From Campylobacterales bacterium (GTDB lineage Bacteria; Campylobacterota; Campylobacteria; Campylobacterales; Sulfurimonadaceae): 49,422 bases of DNA. Below the pieces are notes generated by a model, which worked only from the letters and a program-made list of their open reading frames with translations, was not told where the DNA came from and searched no databases. Every line of letters begins with the position of its first letter. Within the stretch, counting starts at the first letter, position 1. Positions 22,881 through 31,807 of this stretch are shown here, in pieces. Location of the stretch: assembly GCA_026390165.1 (NCBI GenBank), contig JAPLGM010000013.1:1-49422 (forward strand), read 5' to 3'. A program made the position numbers and the translations under genes.

Positions 22881-22922
22881 AAGTTTTTAAGGAAGATGTT
22901 AAAAACATTCAAGGGAGAAATA

Positions 22923-24392
22923 ATGGCAAGATTAGTAGTTTTAGGGGGCGGGGTGGCTGGACATACTGCTGCAACGTTTGCGGCAGATTGGCTGGGTAAA
23001 GATCACGAAGTTGTCGTCGTTACTCCTAACGCAAAATGGAACTGGATCCCCTCAAATATTTGGGTTGGTGTTGGTGAAATGTCTAAAGAAGAAGTCACAT
23101 TTGATTTGGCTCCTGTCTATGAAAAAGCGGGAATTACCTATAAACAAGCTAAGGCTGTCAGTCTTAATCCTGAGGGAAGTGCAAAAAGAAATAAACCATT
23201 CGTAACGATTGAGTATACAGGTCAAGGCAAAGTAGGGCATAGTGATGAGATCGAGTATGACTATCTTATCAATGCAACAGGACCAAAACTTAACTTTGGT
23301 GCAACACCAGGGTTGGGCGAAGGTTCAAACCTAGGTGCGCATACTGTCTCTGTTTGTACGGCAGATCACGCAGAGCATGCATCGCATGAATTGACAAAAA
23401 TCATGGATAAAATGCGTAAAGGGCAACGTCAAAAAATCTTGATCGGTACAGGTCACGGTATGTGTACGTGTCAGGGTGCGGCGTTTGAGTATATTTTCAA
23501 TGTTGAACATGAAATCCGTAAAGCAGGTCTTCGCGATATGGCAGATATCCAATGGATCTCAAATGAAGCATTCATGGGTGATTTCGGAATGGGCGGTTTG
23601 CACATGAATGTTGGTGGTTACGTTGTTAGTTCACGTATTTTCACTGAGTCATTATTTGCAGAACGCGGTGTTAACTATATCACTGGGGCTCATGTCAACA
23701 AAGTTGAAAAAGGGAAAGTTTCATACGAGCTTCTCGATGGTTCAATGGGTGAAGAGTCATTCGATTTCTCAATGTTAATTCCACCGTTCGCGGGTGTTGG
23801 TCTCAAAGCGTATAACAAAGCAGGTGATGATATTACTGATACCGTATTCGCACCCAATGGCTTTATGAAAGTAGATGCGGATTATACCCCTAAAGCGTAT
23901 GAAGAGTGGAAAGCTACTGATTGGCCTCGAACGTACCAAAATCCGACCTACAAAAATCTTTTTGCGGCAGGGATTGCATTCGCCCCTCCACATATCATCT
24001 CAAAACCGGCAAAATCACCGAATGGTACCGTTATTAATCCAACTCCACCACGTACAGGTATGCCAAGTGGTATCATCGGTAAAGCCGTAGCCCATAGTAT
24101 CTGTAATTTAATCAAAAACGGGCCAGAAGCTCATTTGCATGAAGCATCAATGGCAGAAATGGGGGCAGCATGTGTTGCGTCTGCTGGTAAAGGGTGGTTA
24201 GATGGTACAGCTGCTGCAATGACCGTTTACCCTGTTGTTCCCGATTATGATAAATATCCAGGGACAGGTCGTGATACCGATTACACTTTTGGTGAGATTG
24301 GTTTGGCGGGTCACTGGATCAAACATATCCTCCACTATTTATTTATGTACAAAGCAAAACTTAAACCGTTCTGGAAAGTAATTCCAGAATAA
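22923..24392 (+). CDS. sqr: Sulfide:quinone oxidoreductase-like flavoprotein
   Basis: This 489-residue flavoprotein of the disulfide reductase superfamily has the FAD-binding LVVLGGGVAGHTAA at the N-terminus. It has a sequence around YDYLINATGPKLNF and cysteines in VSVCTADH, HGMCTCQGAAFEYIF and AACVASAGKG that could form the redox centre. Sulfide:quinone reductases oxidise sulfide at the inner membrane and reduce quinone. The tail HYLFMYKAKLKPFWKVIPE is amphipathic and suits peripheral membrane binding. ATG 22923, preceded by AGGGAGA, is preferred over the in-frame ATG 22896. The subtype is uncertain and a related flavocytochrome-type or unassigned oxidoreductase is possible, so the symbol is tentative. 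Confidence 0.78.
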   Translation: MARLVVLGGGVAGHTAATFAADWLGKDHEVVVVTPNAKWNWIPSNIWVGVGEMSKEEVTFDLAPVYEKAGITYKQAKAVSLNPEGSAKRNKPFVTIEYTGQGKVGHSDEIEYDYLINATGPKLNFGATPGLGEGSNLGAHTVSVCTADHAEHASHELTKIMDKMRKGQRQKILIGTGHGMCTCQGAAFEYIFNVEHEIRKAGLRDMADIQWISNEAFMGDFGMGGLHMNVGGYVVSSRIFTESLFAERGVNYITGAHVNKVEKGKVSYELLDGSMGEESFDFSMLIPPFAGVGLKAYNKAGDDITDTVFAPNGFMKVDADYTPKAYEEWKATDWPRTYQNPTYKNLFAAGIAFAPPHIISKPAKSPNGTVINPTPPRTGMPSGIIGKAVAHSICNLIKNGPEAHLHEASMAEMGAACVASAGKGWLDGTAAAMTVYPVVPDYDKYPGTGRDTDYTFGEIGLAGHWIKHILHYLFMYKAKLKPFWKVIPE

Positions 24393-24452: not shown

Positions 24453-24620
24453 ATGGCAGTCAAACCAGAAGAATTCAATTTTGCAAAAAATGATAAGTTC
24501 AAAACAGCGATGATCCCGGGGAAATTTGCCCGTGCAATGCGCACATGTAAAATTTGGCAATTTATCCGTTTCATCATTATCAACCTCAAGATGCTTGTGG
24601 TTGTAAGTAAAAGTCACTAA
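24453..24620 (+). CDS. Small basic protein following sqr, 55 residues
   Basis: ATG 24453 follows AAAAAGGAAATAAC, a strong ribosome binding site, and the frame ends at 24618-24620. The protein starts MAVKPEEFNFAKND, has a basic middle (GKFARAMRTCK) and a hydrophobic C-terminal helix (IWQFIRFIIINLKMLVVV). It lies 60 bases after the sulfide:quinone reductase gene on the same strand. I do not recognise the family. The hydrophobic, basic helix suggests a small membrane-associated partner or anchor for the reductase. Confidence 0.72.
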   Translation: MAVKPEEFNFAKNDKFKTAMIPGKFARAMRTCKIWQFIRFIIINLKMLVVVSKSH

Positions 24621-24689: not shown

Positions 24690-25502
24690 ATGATTAAAAA
24701 TCTTCTTAAATATCCTGACCCTACTATTCGTCTGATCTCTGCTAATGTCCGTTTCTTTAATGACGAACTGCATCAATGGATTACCGATATGATTGATACG
24801 ATGAACGCGCATGATTTGAGTGCTTTGAGTGCTATTATGATCGGTATCCAGTACAATATTATTGTTATTAAAGAGGCAGATGACTATACCCCTTACATTA
24901 ATGCAAGGTTGATTAAGCATGCGGATGTCTGTACCAAAACCGAACGCAGTACATACTATGAAGGGATAAGTGTTGATGTTGATCGTTACACTAAAGTAAC
25001 CGTCATTTACGAAGATGAGAAGGGAGAATCTCATCATTGCGACTTGGAGGGGGATGCCGCTTGCATATTCCAACAGCAGCTTGATTACTGTTATGGAAGT
25101 ACGTTTGTTGACCGTGTGGATCGTGAAACGAAGGAGCGGATTAACGATTACCTCTCATCGGGATTGGTTAAAGATGCAAAGGGGGGGAGTTGCCCTATCG
25201 TGTTTTACCGTGATTATTTTAAGCGGGGTGCCAAATATGGGCTAGGGCTGATTCTCTTCAGCTTTATTTCTCCTTTTTTTGTTTCATCTGATGTGCGTGA
25301 ATGGATCACTAAAATTGATAGTGCACTGCTTGTTGCAGTTGTTGGGCTGATGATCGGATATTTCTTTTATGCGTTATATGAGTCACGCCAATACAAGCAG
25401 TGTACAAGTTGTCAGATGGGTAATATTATTGGGACTCTTCTCATTTTAACAGGGCAATGGCTGGTCGTAGGGGCAGGTGTTACCTTTTGGATGGCACCAT
25501 GA
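24690..25502 (+). CDS. Peptide deformylase-like pseudoenzyme fused to a three-helix membrane domain
   Basis: Residues 1 to about 150 follow peptide deformylase along their whole length: LLKYPDPTIRLISANV, WITDMIDTMNA, then the regions of the three active-site motifs. Motif 1 (GxGLAAxQ) reads LSALSAIM, motif 2 (EGCLS) reads YYEGIS, and motif 3 (HExDH) reads QQQLDY at 128-133. The metal ligands Cys and two His, and the catalytic Glu, are all gone. The C-terminal part has three hydrophobic helices (about 183-200, 211-230, 245-268) and a CTSC pair at 238-241. It cannot deformylate; a sensing or scaffold role is likely. Its stop overlaps the start of a hybrid kinase (ATGA), pointing to signalling. 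Confidence 0.75.
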   Translation: MIKNLLKYPDPTIRLISANVRFFNDELHQWITDMIDTMNAHDLSALSAIMIGIQYNIIVIKEADDYTPYINARLIKHADVCTKTERSTYYEGISVDVDRYTKVTVIYEDEKGESHHCDLEGDAACIFQQQLDYCYGSTFVDRVDRETKERINDYLSSGLVKDAKGGSCPIVFYRDYFKRGAKYGLGLILFSFISPFFVSSDVREWITKIDSALLVAVVGLMIGYFFYALYESRQYKQCTSCQMGNIIGTLLILTGQWLVVGAGVTFWMAP

Positions 25503-27433
25503 CAGATTGTTCAAGTTTCAACCAGTTGTATTATGCTAAAGACACCCTTATTAAAGCCAAAGGGGAGATAATAGAGGAGTGGATTTCTCAAAAACAATGC
25601 ACGGATATTCTTCACCATCATAATATAGCGGAGATATGGTTTAGAGACTATTATGCGAACAGCGTTTTTGATTATTTTATGGGGGTAGTGACGGGGGATA
25701 CCCCGCTTGGACAATGCCCTGTTATCCAAAATTTTATTGATTATTTAAAGAATCAAGAGATACGTTCGGATGAGCTTTTTACGCTGTGTACCCATTTTAA
25801 GCGTGCTGCAATTAATGCGACCTATCGGCTTGGAATTCATTCTCAAGGGGTATTTGAGGCGATTAGCTATTTGTTTGATACAAATTTTGCGGGTGTTTTG
25901 AAGCTTTATACCGACACGATCTATCAAAAAGAGCAAGAAGCAATTGAGGCGAATAAAGCAAAAGAGTATTTTCTCTCCAATATGTCGCACGAAATACGTA
26001 CTCCCTTAAACGCTATTTTGGGTTTTGTTGCACTCCTTAAAGAGGAAGAGACCCATCCCACTCATCAAAATTATCTGGATATTATTGCCAATAGCGGGGA
26101 AAATCTACTCCATATTATCAATGATATTTTGGACTTTTCCAAACTTCGTAGTGGTGAATTTGCGATAGATTCCCACCCTTTTAATATTTACGAGCGGATA
26201 ATCAATATTTTTGATCTTTTCATCCCCAATGCGAATCTGAAGAATATTTCGATTCTTAAATCCATAAACGTAATGGCAGGGGATTATATTATTGCTGATT
26301 CCTTTAGAATCCAACAAATCGTCGGAAATCTTCTCAGTAATGCGATTAAATTTAGCCCATTTGATTCATTAATACGTGTTGAGGTGATGATGGTGGATTG
26401 TGTATTAACCATTCGTGTGCAGGATGAGGGGGATGGTATTGCACCTGAAGAGCAACGCCGTATTTTCACCCCTTTTTATCAAGCATCAGAGGGGGTTAAA
26501 CGAAATAGCGGGAGTGGGTTGGGACTCTCTATTTGCAAACAATTGGTGACCCAAATGGGGGGTGAAATTACGTTGGAATCGCAAATCGGTAAGGGTAGCT
26601 TATTTGTGGTTACTGTCCCTGTAGAGTGCGCTCCAGAGGATTTCATGGATCTGAAAAGTGAAAAACTTGAAGTAAATTTATTTCAAGGTAAAGTTTTGGT
26701 TGCCGAAGATAATGAAGCAAACCAAGCGCTGATTCGGATCGTTCTTGAAAAATATGGTTTATATGTGGAGATTGTTTCCAATGGTGAAGAAGCGTATACC
26801 TATGCGATCCAAGAGCCGTTCGATCTGATTTTAATGGATGAACAAATGCCTATTCTGAATGGTCATGAAGCCGTTGCAAAAATTCGCTCTTTTGAACGCA
26901 AACATGATCAAACCCCTGTTCCGATTGTAGCATTGAGTGCCAATGTTCTCAAAGGCTCACGTGAGAGGGCATTAGTGTGGGGATACGATGCGTTTATTGG
27001 TAAGCCTTTTGAGCGTAAGGATTTAGAGCCACTTTTAGAGAAATATTTAAATAAGCAAGCAGGTAAGAAGAAATTTTGCCTACAAAAGAATAATGAATCT
27101 TCCGAAATGAGTCGAATGAAAAAGGCGCTGATGTTAGAAGATGAGCAAATTGTGCAGTTGTTGGATCTTTTTCATTCTAAGATGAGAGATGCACTTTTAG
27201 AGTTACAAAGGGCAATTGAGAGTCGAGATTATGATGTTCTTGGACGCATTGCCCATTTGATAAAAGGGTCAAGTGCCAACTTCAGATTTGAGGAGTTTTC
27301 ACGTCTTGCAGCGTTGATAGAGGACGCAGCCTTGAATAATAGAGAGACTTTTGATTTTGAGGAGGCTTATCATGTGCTGGAGAAAGAGTATGGGTATTTG
27401 CCAAAGGGAGAGAACCTTCACTCCTCCAAATAA
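25499..27433 (+). CDS. Hybrid sensor kinase: N-terminal helical domain, HisKA, HATPase, REC, HPt
   Basis: This 644-residue protein has no membrane segment. An N-terminal helical domain of about 145 residues (unassigned; its WFRDYYANSVFDYF and TLCTHFKRAAI look like an RsbR- or globin-like helical fold) leads by a coiled coil to His164 in SNMSHEIRTPLN. HATPase has N-box NLLSNAIKFS, DEGDGI and GSGLGLSI. REC has Asp447 in LILMDEQMP and GKPF later, and HPt has His586 in IAHLIKGSS. All four phosphorelay residues are present. ATG 25499 overlaps the stop of the deformylase-like membrane gene; the frame is open further upstream but inside that gene. The HPt probably passes phosphate to the convergent regulator at 27418. 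Confidence 0.88.
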   Translation: MTDCSSFNQLYYAKDTLIKAKGEIIEEWISQKQCTDILHHHNIAEIWFRDYYANSVFDYFMGVVTGDTPLGQCPVIQNFIDYLKNQEIRSDELFTLCTHFKRAAINATYRLGIHSQGVFEAISYLFDTNFAGVLKLYTDTIYQKEQEAIEANKAKEYFLSNMSHEIRTPLNAILGFVALLKEEETHPTHQNYLDIIANSGENLLHIINDILDFSKLRSGEFAIDSHPFNIYERIINIFDLFIPNANLKNISILKSINVMAGDYIIADSFRIQQIVGNLLSNAIKFSPFDSLIRVEVMMVDCVLTIRVQDEGDGIAPEEQRRIFTPFYQASEGVKRNSGSGLGLSICKQLVTQMGGEITLESQIGKGSLFVVTVPVECAPEDFMDLKSEKLEVNLFQGKVLVAEDNEANQALIRIVLEKYGLYVEIVSNGEEAYTYAIQEPFDLILMDEQMPILNGHEAVAKIRSFERKHDQTPVPIVALSANVLKGSRERALVWGYDAFIGKPFERKDLEPLLEKYLNKQAGKKKFCLQKNNESSEMSRMKKALMLEDEQIVQLLDLFHSKMRDALLELQRAIESRDYDVLGRIAHLIKGSSANFRFEEFSRLAALIEDAALNNRETFDFEEAYHVLEKEYGYLPKGENLHSSK

Positions 27434-28167
27434 TACCCAATCCCTGAGGCATTTTTAATCACATCCGTAGGAAGTTTATTCCGTAATCGCCATACGAGTG
27501 TCCGAACACTATTATCGCTTGCCCCTTCCCGTTCCCATACATATTCAGTCGCCTGTGCAAAATCAACGACACTTCCTAAATGAACGACTAATAAGCGGAT
27601 AAAAGCATTCTCTTTTTTGGTCAATTTTATTTTTTGATCTTTATAAAAGGTCTCCCCCAGTGAGATGTCGTGACGATACCCCTCTCCAAATTCGACAAGA
27701 GGTTGATCCGAAATTTTTTTGATATAAAGAAGTTTTTCGAGATGTTCTTTGTCGTGCTTGAGTTCATCCATACTGACAAGCCGTTTTTGTTCCTCTGCGA
27801 AGCGGTAGAGTGCCATTTGGATGGTGGTATGAAGATTGAGAGGGTCGAATGGTTTAACAATATAGCCGTACGGCTCTGTTTGCTTGGCACTGGTTAGTAT
27901 TTCTGTGTCGGAGTGGGCGGTAAGGAATATAAAAGGGCGAGGCATCTTATCGCGGATAAAATGGGCAATTTCTATCCCCTCATTATTGCGTTTTAATCCT
28001 ATATCGATGAGGACAATATCGGGATTGTAAATTTTTATTTTGTTTTGAGCACTGAGTTCATCATTCGCAAGGGAGAGAATTTCATATCCTAGTTTTTCCA
28101 ATGACATTTTCAAGTTAAGTGCCGTTACGTCATCGTCTTCGATAATAAGTACTTTAATAGAGGCCAT
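27418..28167 (-). CDS. Response regulator with winged-helix output domain
   Basis: REC (about 4-125) has IIEDDD, phosphoacceptor Asp55 (VLIDIGLK), TAH and KPFDP. A linker of about 60 residues (RFAEEQKRLVSMDEL and following) is longer than normal and coiled. The winged-helix domain (about 180-249) has LTKKENAFIRLLVVHLG, a recognition region DNSVRTLVWRLRNKLP and the wing GIGYYLEE. It converges on the hybrid kinase gene with a 16-base overlap of their 3' ends. The pair is likely cognate, although it is not in one operon. Confidence 0.85.
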   Translation of the reverse strand: MASIKVLIIEDDDVTALNLKMSLEKLGYEILSLANDELSAQNKIKIYNPDIVLIDIGLKRNNEGIEIAHFIRDKMPRPFIFLTAHSDTEILTSAKQTEPYGYIVKPFDPLNLHTTIQMALYRFAEEQKRLVSMDELKHDKEHLEKLLYIKKISDQPLVEFGEGYRHDISLGETFYKDQKIKLTKKENAFIRLLVVHLGSVVDFAQATEYVWEREGASDNSVRTLVWRLRNKLPTDVIKNASGIGYYLEE

Positions 28168-28320: not shown

Positions 28321-29697
28321 ATGCCCATAATGCTTGATTTTGATAAATTTACCCGATATTCCAAACCTGGACCACGTTATACGAGTTATCCTACTGCGTT
28401 AGAATTTAGTGATACGTTTGGTTACACATCGTATCTTGAAAAACTTCATTCCCAAGATCCAAAGCGTCCATTGTCCCTCTATTTTCACCTCCCTTTTTGT
28501 AAAAATGCCTGTTACTTTTGTGGTTGTAATGTCGTTTTTACCTCCAAAGAGGAGAAGAAAGAGCGTTATATCGATTATTTGTTGCGTGAAATGGAGATTT
28601 TGAGTCAACACATCGATGTTAGCCGCCCTGTTATTCAGCTCCATTTCGGCGGGGGGACACCAACATTTTTTAATGCGGAGCAGTTGGGGCGTATTATTGG
28701 TGCGATCAAAAGTCATTTTAAAAATTTCACAGCCGATGCGGAGATTAGTTGTGAGATTGATCCCCGTCATATCAACGAAGAACAGATGAAGGTGATGAGT
28801 GACGCAGGGTTCAATCGCGTCAGCTTTGGGATTCAAGATTTTGATGAAAAAGTTCAAATTGCGGTTCACCGTGTTCAGCCGTATGATATTACGAAAGCTG
28901 CTATGGAGTTGGCACGACAATACAATATGGTGAGTGTCAATGTCGATTTGATTTACGGATTGCCATATCAGAGCTTAGAGACGTTTAAAAAGAGTCTTGA
29001 TTTGGCAATTTCTCTCAATCCTGACCGTTTTGCTGTCTTTAATTACGCCCATGTGCCATGGTTGAAAAAAACGATGCGTAAAATTGATGAGACGACATTG
29101 CCACTTCCTGCGGAAAAATTGGCGATTATGCGTTATACCATCGACTATATGAATGAACGCGGATACAAAATGATCGGCATGGATCACTTTGCCAAGCCTG
29201 CGGATGAACTGTTCAAAGCGATTGAAAAAGGGGAGTTGCACCGTAATTTCCAAGGCTATACAACCAAAGGGGGTGCGGATTTGATTGGTGTTGGTCTCAC
29301 CTCCATAGGAGAAGGGGCGGATTATTACTCTCAAAACTTTAAAGAGATGGATCGGTATGAAGAGGCGATTGATGCGGGGAAATTGCCTCATGAACGCGGT
29401 GTCGCCCTAAATGTTGATGACCGTATTCGTCAATACGTTATTATGGAGCTGATGAGTAACTTCAAGCTCGATATTGGTCGATTTGAAAAACTCTACAAGG
29501 TCAAATTTGCAGAGTATTTTGCCGATGCACTGGAGGAGTTAAAACCTTTCGAAGCGGATGAACTTTTGACGATGACCCCAAGCCTTATCGAATGTTCTCC
29601 TACGGGGACGTTGCTGATCCGTAATATCGCCATCGTTTTTGATGCCTATATGAAACGGCACGCTTCAAACTCAAAAACATTCAGCAAGACGGTGTAA
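28321..29697 (+). CDS. hemN: Oxygen-independent coproporphyrinogen III oxidase
   Basis: HemN is a radical-SAM enzyme that decarboxylates coproporphyrinogen III to protoporphyrinogen IX in haem synthesis without oxygen. The 458-residue protein has YSKPGPRYTSYPTALEF at the N-terminus, the cluster motif FCKNACYFCGC (Cys60, 64, 67, 69), FGGGTP and a HemN C-terminal domain. The N-terminal block and the CxC cluster end distinguish true HemN from HemW-like proteins. ATG 28321 and ATG 28330 are both possible. It starts a four-gene operon with 1-base or overlapping junctions. Confidence 0.93.
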   Translation: MPIMLDFDKFTRYSKPGPRYTSYPTALEFSDTFGYTSYLEKLHSQDPKRPLSLYFHLPFCKNACYFCGCNVVFTSKEEKKERYIDYLLREMEILSQHIDVSRPVIQLHFGGGTPTFFNAEQLGRIIGAIKSHFKNFTADAEISCEIDPRHINEEQMKVMSDAGFNRVSFGIQDFDEKVQIAVHRVQPYDITKAAMELARQYNMVSVNVDLIYGLPYQSLETFKKSLDLAISLNPDRFAVFNYAHVPWLKKTMRKIDETTLPLPAEKLAIMRYTIDYMNERGYKMIGMDHFAKPADELFKAIEKGELHRNFQGYTTKGGADLIGVGLTSIGEGADYYSQNFKEMDRYEEAIDAGKLPHERGVALNVDDRIRQYVIMELMSNFKLDIGRFEKLYKVKFAEYFADALEELKPFEADELLTMTPSLIECSPTGTLLIRNIAIVFDAYMKRHASNSKTFSKTV

Positions 29698-29698
29698 G

Positions 29699-30982
29699 AT
29701 GACGAAAAACGGCGAAGTGTTCAATTTTACCGAAACCTCGGATGCGTGTATCAAATGTGGAAAATGTATCCCCGTTTGTACGATTCACAATGTCAATGCG
29801 GATGAGGTCACTTCTCCTCGCGGATTTATTGATCTCCTTGGAGCGTATCAGCGGGGTGAGTTGGAGCTTGATTTTAATGCCAAAGAGATTTTTGAGAGCT
29901 GTTTTTTGTGTACTAACTGTACCGATGTATGCCCTAAAGCGTTACCGACGGATATGGTGATCGAACAAGTGCGTGCGGATATTGCCGATAAATTTGGGAT
30001 TGCGTGGTTTAAACGGGCCTTTTTTTATCTCTTGCGTCACCGGTTGACGATGGATATTCTCTTTAAACTTGGGTATGTTTTTCAAACGTGCGGCTTTAAG
30101 ATCAAAGCGGAACTTAACTCAATGCAACCACGATTTAATCTTCCCATTATCAAAAAAGATCGTCTACTGCCTGCCATGGGGAAAACGTCGTTTTTAAACA
30201 GCTATCCTGAAAATATCTCCCATGGGGGAAAACGTCGTGTCGCGATTTTCATAGGGTGTTTGGGGAATTACAACTATACGCAAATTGGTGATGGATTGGT
30301 TGAAATTTTAGAAGAGCTGAAGATTGATGTCTTTATCCCCAAAAAACAGCTTTGTTGTGGAGCACCTGCCTATTTTACGGGAGATTTCGCGACGGTTGAT
30401 CACAATGCCAAAAAGAATATTGCCTATTTTGAGAGTTTTATTGATGAGGTCGAGGCGATTATTATCCCCGAAGCGACGTGCAGTGCGATGATAAAAATCG
30501 ATTATGAACACTTCTTTCACGATCAGCCGGAGTGGTTGGAGCGTTCCAAAAAACTCAAAGATAAGATCTTTATGGCAACCGAATGGTTGGAACAACATAC
30601 TGATCTTAAAACGGTGTTAGCCCATAAAAAACGCTCCGATTTGAGTGTCACCTATCATGACCCGTGTCATGCCCGCAAAATGCAAGGGATTCACAAAGAA
30701 CCTCGAACCCTCATTGCCCAAAATTACGCCATCAAAGAGATGAGTGACCCTAATACCTGTTGTGGTTTTGGAGGGGTGACGATGCAAACGGAGAAATTCC
30801 ATTTTGCTCAAGCGGTCGGTCGTCCCAAAGCGGCGATGATTAAACAAAGTGGCGCACAAATCGTCAGTGCCGAGTGCAGTGCGTGCCGTATGCAAATCAA
30901 TAACTCCCTCAATGAAGCGAATGTGGATGTTATCTTTAAAAATCCGATTGAGTTGATTGCCGAAGCGTTGAAGGGAAAATAA
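29699..30982 (+). CDS. GlcF/LutA-like iron-sulfur oxidoreductase subunit
   Basis: Two 4Fe-4S motifs (CIKCGKCIPVC at 17-27; CFLCTNCTDVCP at about 68-79) are followed by two cysteine-rich CCG domains: KKQLCCGAPAYF and, near the C-terminus, DPNTCCGFGG with HDPCHARKM before it. This is the build of GlcF (glycolate oxidase), LutA/LldE (lactate) and HdrD-type electron transfer subunits. No flavoprotein partner (GlcD) is adjacent. It starts 1 base after the hemN stop. A role in passing electrons from HemN-step chemistry or from a distant dehydrogenase is possible, but function is not settled. Confidence 0.82.
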   Translation: MTKNGEVFNFTETSDACIKCGKCIPVCTIHNVNADEVTSPRGFIDLLGAYQRGELELDFNAKEIFESCFLCTNCTDVCPKALPTDMVIEQVRADIADKFGIAWFKRAFFYLLRHRLTMDILFKLGYVFQTCGFKIKAELNSMQPRFNLPIIKKDRLLPAMGKTSFLNSYPENISHGGKRRVAIFIGCLGNYNYTQIGDGLVEILEELKIDVFIPKKQLCCGAPAYFTGDFATVDHNAKKNIAYFESFIDEVEAIIIPEATCSAMIKIDYEHFFHDQPEWLERSKKLKDKIFMATEWLEQHTDLKTVLAHKKRSDLSVTYHDPCHARKMQGIHKEPRTLIAQNYAIKEMSDPNTCCGFGGVTMQTEKFHFAQAVGRPKAAMIKQSGAQIVSAECSACRMQINNSLNEANVDVIFKNPIELIAEALKGK

Positions 30983-31479
30983 TGACGACATTAGAAGTTA
31001 ATACGTTTTTAGAGCAATTTCAAACCCTTATGATGGCATCTCTTACCCCTGAGGGGGAAGTGCACGCGAGCACCGCTCCGTTTGTCCGACAGGAGAACGA
31101 TTTTTATATCTTGATTAGTACCATTGCACAACATGGGAGGAATCTTCTCCTTTCCCCAAAAGTCTCATTATTTTTTGCCGAAGATGAAGCCAAAACACTT
31201 CAACCGTTCGCCCGTAAACGGATTACCATTGAGGCTTCCGTCTCTGAAATTCTCCGTGAAGAGGGTATGTTTGAAGCAATAATAACGTTGTTCAAAGAGA
31301 AGTTTGATAGCGATTTGATTAACTCGTTGTCAGGGATGGGAGATTTCCATCTTTTTAAACTTTCTACGGTGAGCGGAAGTGCTGTTATGGGATTTGGAAA
31401 AGCGTATCGTTTGAATGAAAAGTTGGAAGTGATGAAACAGATTGTAGGACACCATCAAAAGGGGCATGGCAATGGATAA
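30982..31479 (+). CDS. HugZ-like FMN/haem split-barrel protein
   Basis: This 165-residue protein has the split-barrel core of the pyridoxamine oxidase superfamily: LMMASLTPEGEVHASTAPFV, DFYILISTIAQHGRNLLLSPKVSLFF and RKRITIEASV. The C-terminal tail GHHQKGHG is the histidine-rich end typical of HugZ-type haem-degrading proteins, where a histidine of this tail binds haem. HugZ of Campylobacter and Helicobacter is about 250 residues; this one lacks the N-terminal extension. The start overlaps the preceding stop (TAATG). Haem oxygenase or haem carrier role is inferred from family and the hemN neighbour. Confidence 0.75.
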   Translation: MTTLEVNTFLEQFQTLMMASLTPEGEVHASTAPFVRQENDFYILISTIAQHGRNLLLSPKVSLFFAEDEAKTLQPFARKRITIEASVSEILREEGMFEAIITLFKEKFDSDLINSLSGMGDFHLFKLSTVSGSAVMGFGKAYRLNEKLEVMKQIVGHHQKGHGNG

Positions 31480-31807
31480 GCTTTTAATCGTATGGAGTAG
31501 CGGAGAGATCGAGGTTGCTAAAAAACTCGTCTTATTGTACGGAAGCGTTATTTTACCGCGCGGTTATTGGGACGAAGCCCATTTGATGATTTGGGGGCCT
31601 TCGGCGAAGCTCTTGGCTGAAAATACGGAGTTGCAAGAGATGGTTGCCAAAGTGATAGAGAGCGGTGTAAAAGCCTCTGTCTGTATTGTATGTAGTGATG
31701 ATTATGGCGTGAGCGAACAATTGAGTGCGATGGGCATTGAACCGATTCATACGGGGGAATTTTTGACACAGGCATTGAAGAGTGACTGGAAAGTGGTGAC
31801 GTTTTAA
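31472..31807 (+). CDS. DsrE-like small protein
   Basis: This protein of about 111 residues has the DsrE/F-like alpha/beta fold: KLLIVWSSGEIEVAKKLVLLY, an AHLMIWGPSAKLL strand-helix unit, and GVKASVCIVCSDDYGV with two cysteines near the position of the active cysteines of sulfur-transfer DsrE proteins. ATG 31472 is preferred over 31466 because GGGG lies 7 bases before it. It overlaps the HugZ-like gene by 8 bases and ends the operon. Sulfur relay is possible; many such proteins have no known role. Confidence 0.68.
   Translation: MDKLLIVWSSGEIEVAKKLVLLYGSVILPRGYWDEAHLMIWGPSAKLLAENTELQEMVAKVIESGVKASVCIVCSDDYGVSEQLSAMGIEPIHTGEFLTQALKSDWKVVTF

What the first reader, a model, noticed from the sequence alone, without database searches (positions are those of the whole stretch)
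24690..28167. Membrane-bound pseudo-deformylase coupled to a hybrid kinase and a convergent regulator
The peptide deformylase fold is recognisable along 150 residues, yet Cys, both His and the catalytic Glu are replaced (QQQLDY for QHExDH). It is fused to three membrane helices and translationally coupled (ATGA) to a soluble hybrid kinase with full phosphorelay residues. A dead deformylase could bind formyl-peptides or a related ligand and signal to the kinase. I know of no described system of this kind.
Basis: partly seen in the sequence, partly recalled or inferred. Interest (0 to 1): 0.75.

Follow-up and report, generated by a model that had tools for sequence, protein, structure and literature searches.

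The report
Dead deformylase paired with sulfide oxidase
A protein-processing enzyme that has lost its active site has been turned into a membrane protein that travels with the enzyme by which deep-sea and groundwater bacteria oxidise hydrogen sulfide, so it probably serves sulfide respiration rather than sensing formyl peptides for a kinase.

Summary
Window 24690-25502 encodes a peptide-deformylase fold in which Cys, both His and Glu are replaced, fused to three membrane helices, followed by a hybrid kinase and a convergent regulator. The protein (PDFL) is a conserved family of sulfur-oxidising Campylobacterota. Of 397 genomes, 79 carry it; all 79 also carry one type of sulfide:quinone oxidoreductase (SQR), and in 71 PDFL lies directly downstream of that gene. 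The kinase and regulator were found beside it only in the window's own family (Sulfurimonadaceae), and they persist where PDFL, or both PDFL and SQR, are gone. The gap between SQR and PDFL holds an unannotated 55-aa protein gene found directly downstream of all 114 SQR copies located. PDFL's most conserved feature is not the old active site but three near-invariant cysteines at the membrane (C168, C238, C241). Separate PDFL copies sit beside MerR, AhpD-like or DsrE-like genes, again a thiol/sulfur setting. Most likely PDFL is an SQR accessory membrane protein acting through those cysteines, wired secondarily to a two-component system; the chemistry is inferred. I found no published description.

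The parts
22896..24392 (+). Sulfide:quinone oxidoreductase gene; likely true start ATG at 22923 (homologues of 489 aa begin MARLVV)
   Evidence: phmmer to A. aeolicus SQR 3hyv E 2.6e-40; C154, C192, C426 align with its C124, C156, C347 and are invariant in 42 sequences
24453..24620 (+). Unannotated small protein, 55 aa (MAVKPEEFNFAKNDKFKTAMIPGKFARAMRTCKIWQFIRFIIINLKMLVVVSKSH)
   Evidence: Conserved ORF directly downstream of 114 of 114 SQR copies in 111 genomes; pN/pS 0.18; no Pfam or NCBIfam family
24690..25502 (+). PDFL: pseudo-deformylase fused to a three-helix membrane module (270 aa)
   Evidence: PF01327 E 4.7e-29, AF2 model matches PDF structures, active-site residues replaced in all relatives
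25191..25499 (+). Membrane module of PDFL, from C168-P169 to the C-terminus; C238-T-S-C241-Q at 25401-25415
   Evidence: C168 73/74, C238 74/74, C241 74/74; found only fused to the PDF-like domain, in the same 79 genomes
25499..27433 (+). Soluble hybrid histidine kinase (globin-like N-terminal domain, HisKA, HATPase, REC, Hpt)
   Evidence: Pfam; AF2 model of residues 1-151 pLDDT 84 with globin-like matches, each individually weak
27418..28167 (-). OmpR-type response regulator, convergent with the kinase
   Evidence: Response_reg E 8.9e-17, Trans_reg_C E 8.6e-12; conserved next to the kinase

Best explanation
PDFL is an accessory membrane protein of a sulfide-oxidation unit made of SQR, a 55-aa protein and PDFL. 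The deformylase domain is a metal-free scaffold on the cytoplasmic side. It holds three conserved cysteines at the membrane interface (one before the first helix, a C-x-S-C-Q motif between the second and third), which I propose handle or sense sulfane sulfur or thiol/quinone redox state produced by SQR. In Sulfurimonadaceae the unit also sits beside a soluble hybrid kinase and response regulator that probably adjust expression to sulfide or respiratory state. Shown: fold, loss of the active site in every relative, cysteine conservation, strict co-occurrence and order with SQR and the small protein, and dispensability of PDFL for keeping the kinase pair. Inferred: physical complex, topology, sulfur or redox chemistry, and any signal from PDFL to the kinase.
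For: All 79 PDFL genomes among 397 have this SQR (79/0/32/286; Fisher p 1.4e-57, not corrected for relatedness); 71 have PDFL directly downstream on the same strand, gap 206-571 nt, median 277. The gap holds a conserved small protein that follows 114 of 114 SQR copies; its only copy away from SQR in that survey lies next to a PDFL gene without SQR, and L055 shows the same arrangement. Cysteines C168, C238, C241 are in 73-74 of 74 sequences while catalytic positions vary freely. The membrane module occurs only fused to this PDF domain. PDFL copies elsewhere lie beside MerR, AhpD-like (CKMC) or DsrE-like genes. PDFL forms one group apart from true PDFs, support 100/99.
Against: 32 genomes have the SQR and the small protein without PDFL, so PDFL is not needed for SQR as such. 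Eight of 79 PDFL genomes have no copy directly after SQR; some of these are contig breaks. Genomic association does not prove contact. SQRs in other bacteria are placed on the periplasmic face (background knowledge), whereas the PDFL domain is predicted cytoplasmic. The predicted model is only moderate (pTM 0.46). No direct evidence bears on what the cysteines bind.
Confidence: 0.6

Rival explanations
1. One reading: PDFL binds formyl-Met peptides or a related ligand and passes the signal to the translationally coupled kinase.
For: Deformylase fold kept; kinase next to PDFL in most Sulfurimonadaceae, overlapping in the window.
Against: Kinase pair kept where PDFL is gone (L138, L139, L162-L164) and where PDFL and SQR are gone (L157-L160). 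PDFL kept with SQR in families without the kinase there. The kinase has its own sensor-like domain. Overlap is not conserved.
Confidence: 0.06
2. PDFL is a redox or sulfane-sulfur sensor for the kinase in Sulfurimonadaceae, using its cysteine triad, with SQR as signal source rather than partner.
For: Invariant cysteines; four-gene order SQR-small-PDFL-kinase in one family; a sulfide-sensing two-component system next to sqr is known in Bacillus licheniformis (NreBC, PMC9918477).
Against: Same arrangement without kinase in other families; kinase kept without PDFL.
Confidence: 0.2
3. PDFL is a biogenesis factor: the deformylase domain docks on ribosomes or nascent chains (as PDF does) to help insert SQR or the small protein into the membrane.
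For: PDF acts on nascent chains at the ribosome (background knowledge); PDFL follows SQR and the small protein in gene order.
Against: 32 SQR genomes lack PDFL; copies exist away from SQR, beside MerR, AhpD-like or DsrE-like genes; no test of ribosome contact.
Confidence: 0.1
4. PDFL still binds a metal with other ligands and is an enzyme with a new hydrolytic or thiol activity.
For: Structural residues E85, R99, Q128, D132 invariant.
Against: All deformylase metal-ligand positions vary freely; no conserved His near the old site.
Confidence: 0.04

Closest known systems
Peptide deformylase (PF01327)
   Same: Fold over the full domain and structural residues YPD, E88, R97, Q131, D135
   Different: Metal ligands and catalytic Glu lost; fused to three membrane helices with three conserved cysteines; not a replacement for the genome's true PDF
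Sulfide:quinone oxidoreductase (A. aeolicus 3hyv, A. ferrooxidans 3sz0)
   Same: The upstream gene aligns along the fold and keeps the three SQR cysteines
   Different: Always followed by a 55-aa protein and often by PDFL; I know of no such partners for SQR. Its SQR type (probably IV or VI from PMC4584964) was not tested
NreBC of Bacillus licheniformis (PMC9918477)
   Same: A two-component system beside sqr in a sulfide-oxidation cluster
   Different: PAS kinase, no hybrid phosphorelay, no pseudo-deformylase
Globin-fold sensor domains (RsbR N-terminus 2bnl, HemAT, DosC)
   Same: Predicted fold of the kinase N-terminus, TM about 0.6-0.68
   Different: Individual E-values 0.05-0.25; heme ligand not identified; no Pfam match

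Membership tests
Peptide deformylase fold family (PF01327) | Profile match over the whole domain above the curated cut-off | tested here: met
   101.4 bits vs cut-off 22.8, positions 1-155 of 156
Peptide deformylase fold family (PF01327) | Predicted structure matches solved deformylases | tested here: met
   Top 50 PDB matches listed all deformylases, best E 2.8e-8
Active peptide deformylase (EC 3.5.1.88) | Metal-binding Cys (EGCLS) and two His (HExxH) and catalytic Glu | tested here: not met
   Ser, Gln, Gln, Tyr in the window; no relative of 74 has Cys, Glu or the second His; scores under all NCBIfam equivalog cut-offs
Sulfide:quinone oxidoreductase (upstream gene) | Homology to solved SQRs along the fold | tested here: met
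   3hyv E 2.6e-40 over residues 12-432
Sulfide:quinone oxidoreductase (upstream gene) | Redox-active cysteines | tested here: met
   C154, C192, C426 invariant in 42 sequences and aligned with C124, C156, C347
Sulfide:quinone oxidoreductase (upstream gene) | Sulfide-dependent quinone reduction | not testable with these tools
   Needs an enzyme assay
Hybrid histidine kinase phosphorelay | HisKA, HATPase_c, receiver and Hpt domains with a partner response regulator | tested here: met
   Four Pfam domains and an adjacent REC plus Trans_reg_C protein
Globin-coupled sensor | Heme-binding globin domain | tested here: inconclusive
   Globin-like predicted fold, weak individual E-values, no Pfam match, no clear heme ligand
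Formyl-peptide receptor or sensor | Binding of formylated peptides coupled to kinase output | not testable with these tools
   Needs a binding assay; genomic evidence speaks against obligatory kinase coupling

The most novel reading that the evidence does not exclude
A translation enzyme was stripped of its metal site and rebuilt as a respiratory accessory subunit: with a 55-aa protein it forms a membrane complex with SQR that takes sulfane sulfur or electrons through a conserved cysteine triad, and in one family hands the state to a phosphorelay.
Probability: 0.3. Interest if true: 0.8.

Novelty: new variant of a known kind. Interest (0 to 1): 0.62.

Why it matters
SQR is usually treated as acting alone, and how sulfide-oxidising Campylobacterota use their different SQRs is an open question (PMC4584964). 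Two conserved proteins that travel with one SQR, one of them a dead deformylase still annotated as peptide deformylase in RefSeq and the other in no Pfam or NCBIfam family, make that question directly testable by deletion and pull-down. The case also shows a core translation fold recruited to sulfur metabolism.

Tried and rejected
Formyl-peptide sensing by a dedicated PDFL-kinase pair: rejected as main reading because kinase and PDFL are kept independently. PDFL as a pseudogene: rejected, conserved across genera with intact frames. Membrane module shared with other proteins: none found in the phylum. Terminator, promoter or Rfam element explaining the SQR-PDFL gap: no terminator-like site or Rfam match in the gap, and promoter-like sites no more than chance over the region; it holds a small gene. 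Antisense ORF cluster c8 in that gap: judged a mirror of the conserved SQR end and small gene. PDF binding of hydrosulfide (PDB 4az4, 4al2) as explanation: set aside because the metal ligands are lost; no held paper joins the two terms. Occurrence outside Campylobacterota: not settled; plasmid tblastn gave one PDFL (Sulfurovum) and otherwise shorter deformylase matches. Paper searches joining deformylase with Sulfuricurvum, Sulfurimonas, Sulfurovum or SQR found no description.

Full report
Observation. PDFL (24690-25502) matches Pfam deformylase along its whole length (E 4.7e-29), and the AlphaFold2 model of an alignment of 14 relatives finds solved deformylases. The residues that define the enzyme are replaced: Cys90, His132, Glu133 and His136 of E. 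coli PDF correspond to Ser87, Gln129, Gln130 and Tyr133. The genome has a separate canonical PDF. Three hydrophobic helices follow. The kinase and the convergent regulator have the domains stated.

Not one oddity but a family. PF01327 and profile searches show long PDFL proteins in most Sulfuricurvum genomes and in further families of the phylum. They form one group apart from canonical PDFs (support 100/99). Among 74 sequences below 90% identity no member has the Cys, the Glu or the second His; four have His at the first His position. What is conserved besides fold residues (Y8, P9, R21, E85, R99, Q128, D132, G136) is in the membrane part: C168-P169 before the first helix and C238-x-S-C241-Q-x-x-N-x-x-G between the second and third, with C168 in 73 and C238 and C241 in 74 of 74. 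Positive charges flank these stretches, which suggests that the deformylase domain and the cysteines face the cytoplasm; this topology is inferred. A search with the membrane module alone returns the same 79 genomes and no other architecture.

The conserved neighbour is SQR. The gene directly upstream (22896-24392) is a sulfide:quinone oxidoreductase with the three cysteines of that family. Of 397 Campylobacterota genomes 111 have this SQR and 79 have PDFL; all 79 are among the 111. In 71 of the 79, PDFL is the next large gene downstream on the same strand. The p-value (1.4e-57) ignores relatedness and should be read as description only; the order holds across several families, including ones without the kinase.

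A missed gene. The 200-300 nt between SQR and PDFL contain a conserved ORF, in the window 24453-24620, 55 aa, ending ..MRTCKIWQFIRFIIINLKMLVVVSKSH. It was found in all 42 loci first checked, evolves as a protein (pN/pS 0.18, entropy 0.58/0.20/1.27 at codon positions 1/2/3), and has no Pfam or NCBIfam family. Across 397 genomes it occurs in exactly the 111 SQR genomes, directly downstream of 114 of 114 SQR copies, median gap about 40 nt. The one further copy in that survey lies in front of a PDFL gene that has no SQR beside it (G003, L015); L055 shows the same arrangement. SQR, the small protein and PDFL therefore look like one functional unit in which PDFL is optional.

The kinase is a secondary partner. 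In Sulfuricurvum and most other Sulfurimonadaceae with PDFL the order is SQR, small gene, PDFL, kinase, with the regulator mostly convergent (same strand in L106-L108). Elsewhere the kinase is absent beside PDFL. Conversely, SQR, kinase and regulator remain together without PDFL between them in G020, G009, G028, G031, G110 and others. The kinase remains in G338, G419, G426 and G431, which lack both SQR and PDFL; the regulator was recognised beside it in all but G426. The kinase N-terminus is predicted as a globin-like fold (pLDDT 84; RsbR, HemAT and DosC type matches, individually weak) and is shared with other signalling proteins, such as one that reads as PAS plus GGDEF by eye (L168). It probably senses something itself. 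The start-stop overlap seen in the window is confined to close relatives.

Separate PDFL copies. Copies not next to SQR lie mostly beside a divergent MerR-type gene, some with an AhpD-like protein or a DsrE-like protein. Exceptions are L115, L121 and L149, where no MerR gene was recognised nearby. The sulfur and thiol setting recurs.

Mechanism. The best reading is a membrane accessory protein of sulfide oxidation whose cysteine triad handles or senses sulfane sulfur or redox state, with the dead deformylase as scaffold. The association with SQR is well supported; contact, topology and chemistry are inferred. The formyl-peptide idea has no positive support and its stated premise, that the kinase is the partner, is weakened; it is not formally excluded.

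Known and unknown. SQR, two-component systems beside sqr (NreBC, PMC9918477) and deformylases are known. A pseudo-deformylase and a small protein travelling with SQR were not found in the held literature, which lacks most subscription journals. RefSeq names one PDFL simply peptide deformylase. The SQR type is probably IV or VI, since the type IV clade joins type I and most members of the group carry II, IV and VI (PMC4584964), but this was not tested. Searches outside the phylum were limited to plasmids and one genome-contig scan for close relatives.

Noticed in passing
window 24453-24620 (+): Unannotated 55-aa protein strictly linked to SQR, with an invariant Cys and the ending KSH; found in 111 of 111 SQR genomes.
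   Followed up: yes
L119:4810-5790, L125:2999-3975, L124:3440-3970: Separate PDFL genes sit beside a divergent MerR-type gene with an AhpD-like CMD protein (ENGCKMC) and, in L119 and L125, a secreted-looking DsrE-like protein: a possible thiol/sulfur operon.
   Followed up: partly
L015:5829-5990, L055:4823-4984: A second copy of the small protein lies between the MerR gene and PDFL with no SQR nearby.
   Followed up: partly
window 25499-25951: Kinase N-terminal domain predicted globin-like, not in Pfam, shared with GGDEF and other signalling proteins in the same family of bacteria (for example G000:C19:56648-57079, G035:C11).
   Followed up: partly
window 31466-31807 and 28321-30982: Downstream genes are a HemN-type radical SAM protein, an Fe-S/CCG protein, a PNPOx-like protein and a weak DsrE-like protein; the HemN-type and CCG genes follow the regulator in many relatives.
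   Followed up: no
L156 (NZ_CP087125.1, Sulfurovum mangrovi): A 395-kb linear record labelled plasmid carries SQR-like and PDFL genes and also rpsI and rplM, so it may be a chromosome fragment; its PDFL is annotated as two peptide deformylase pieces.
   Followed up: no
PDB 4az4 and 4al2 (seen): E. coli deformylase has been crystallised with hydrosulfide bound to its metal, a curious coincidence given the SQR link, though PDFL lacks the metal site.
   Followed up: no
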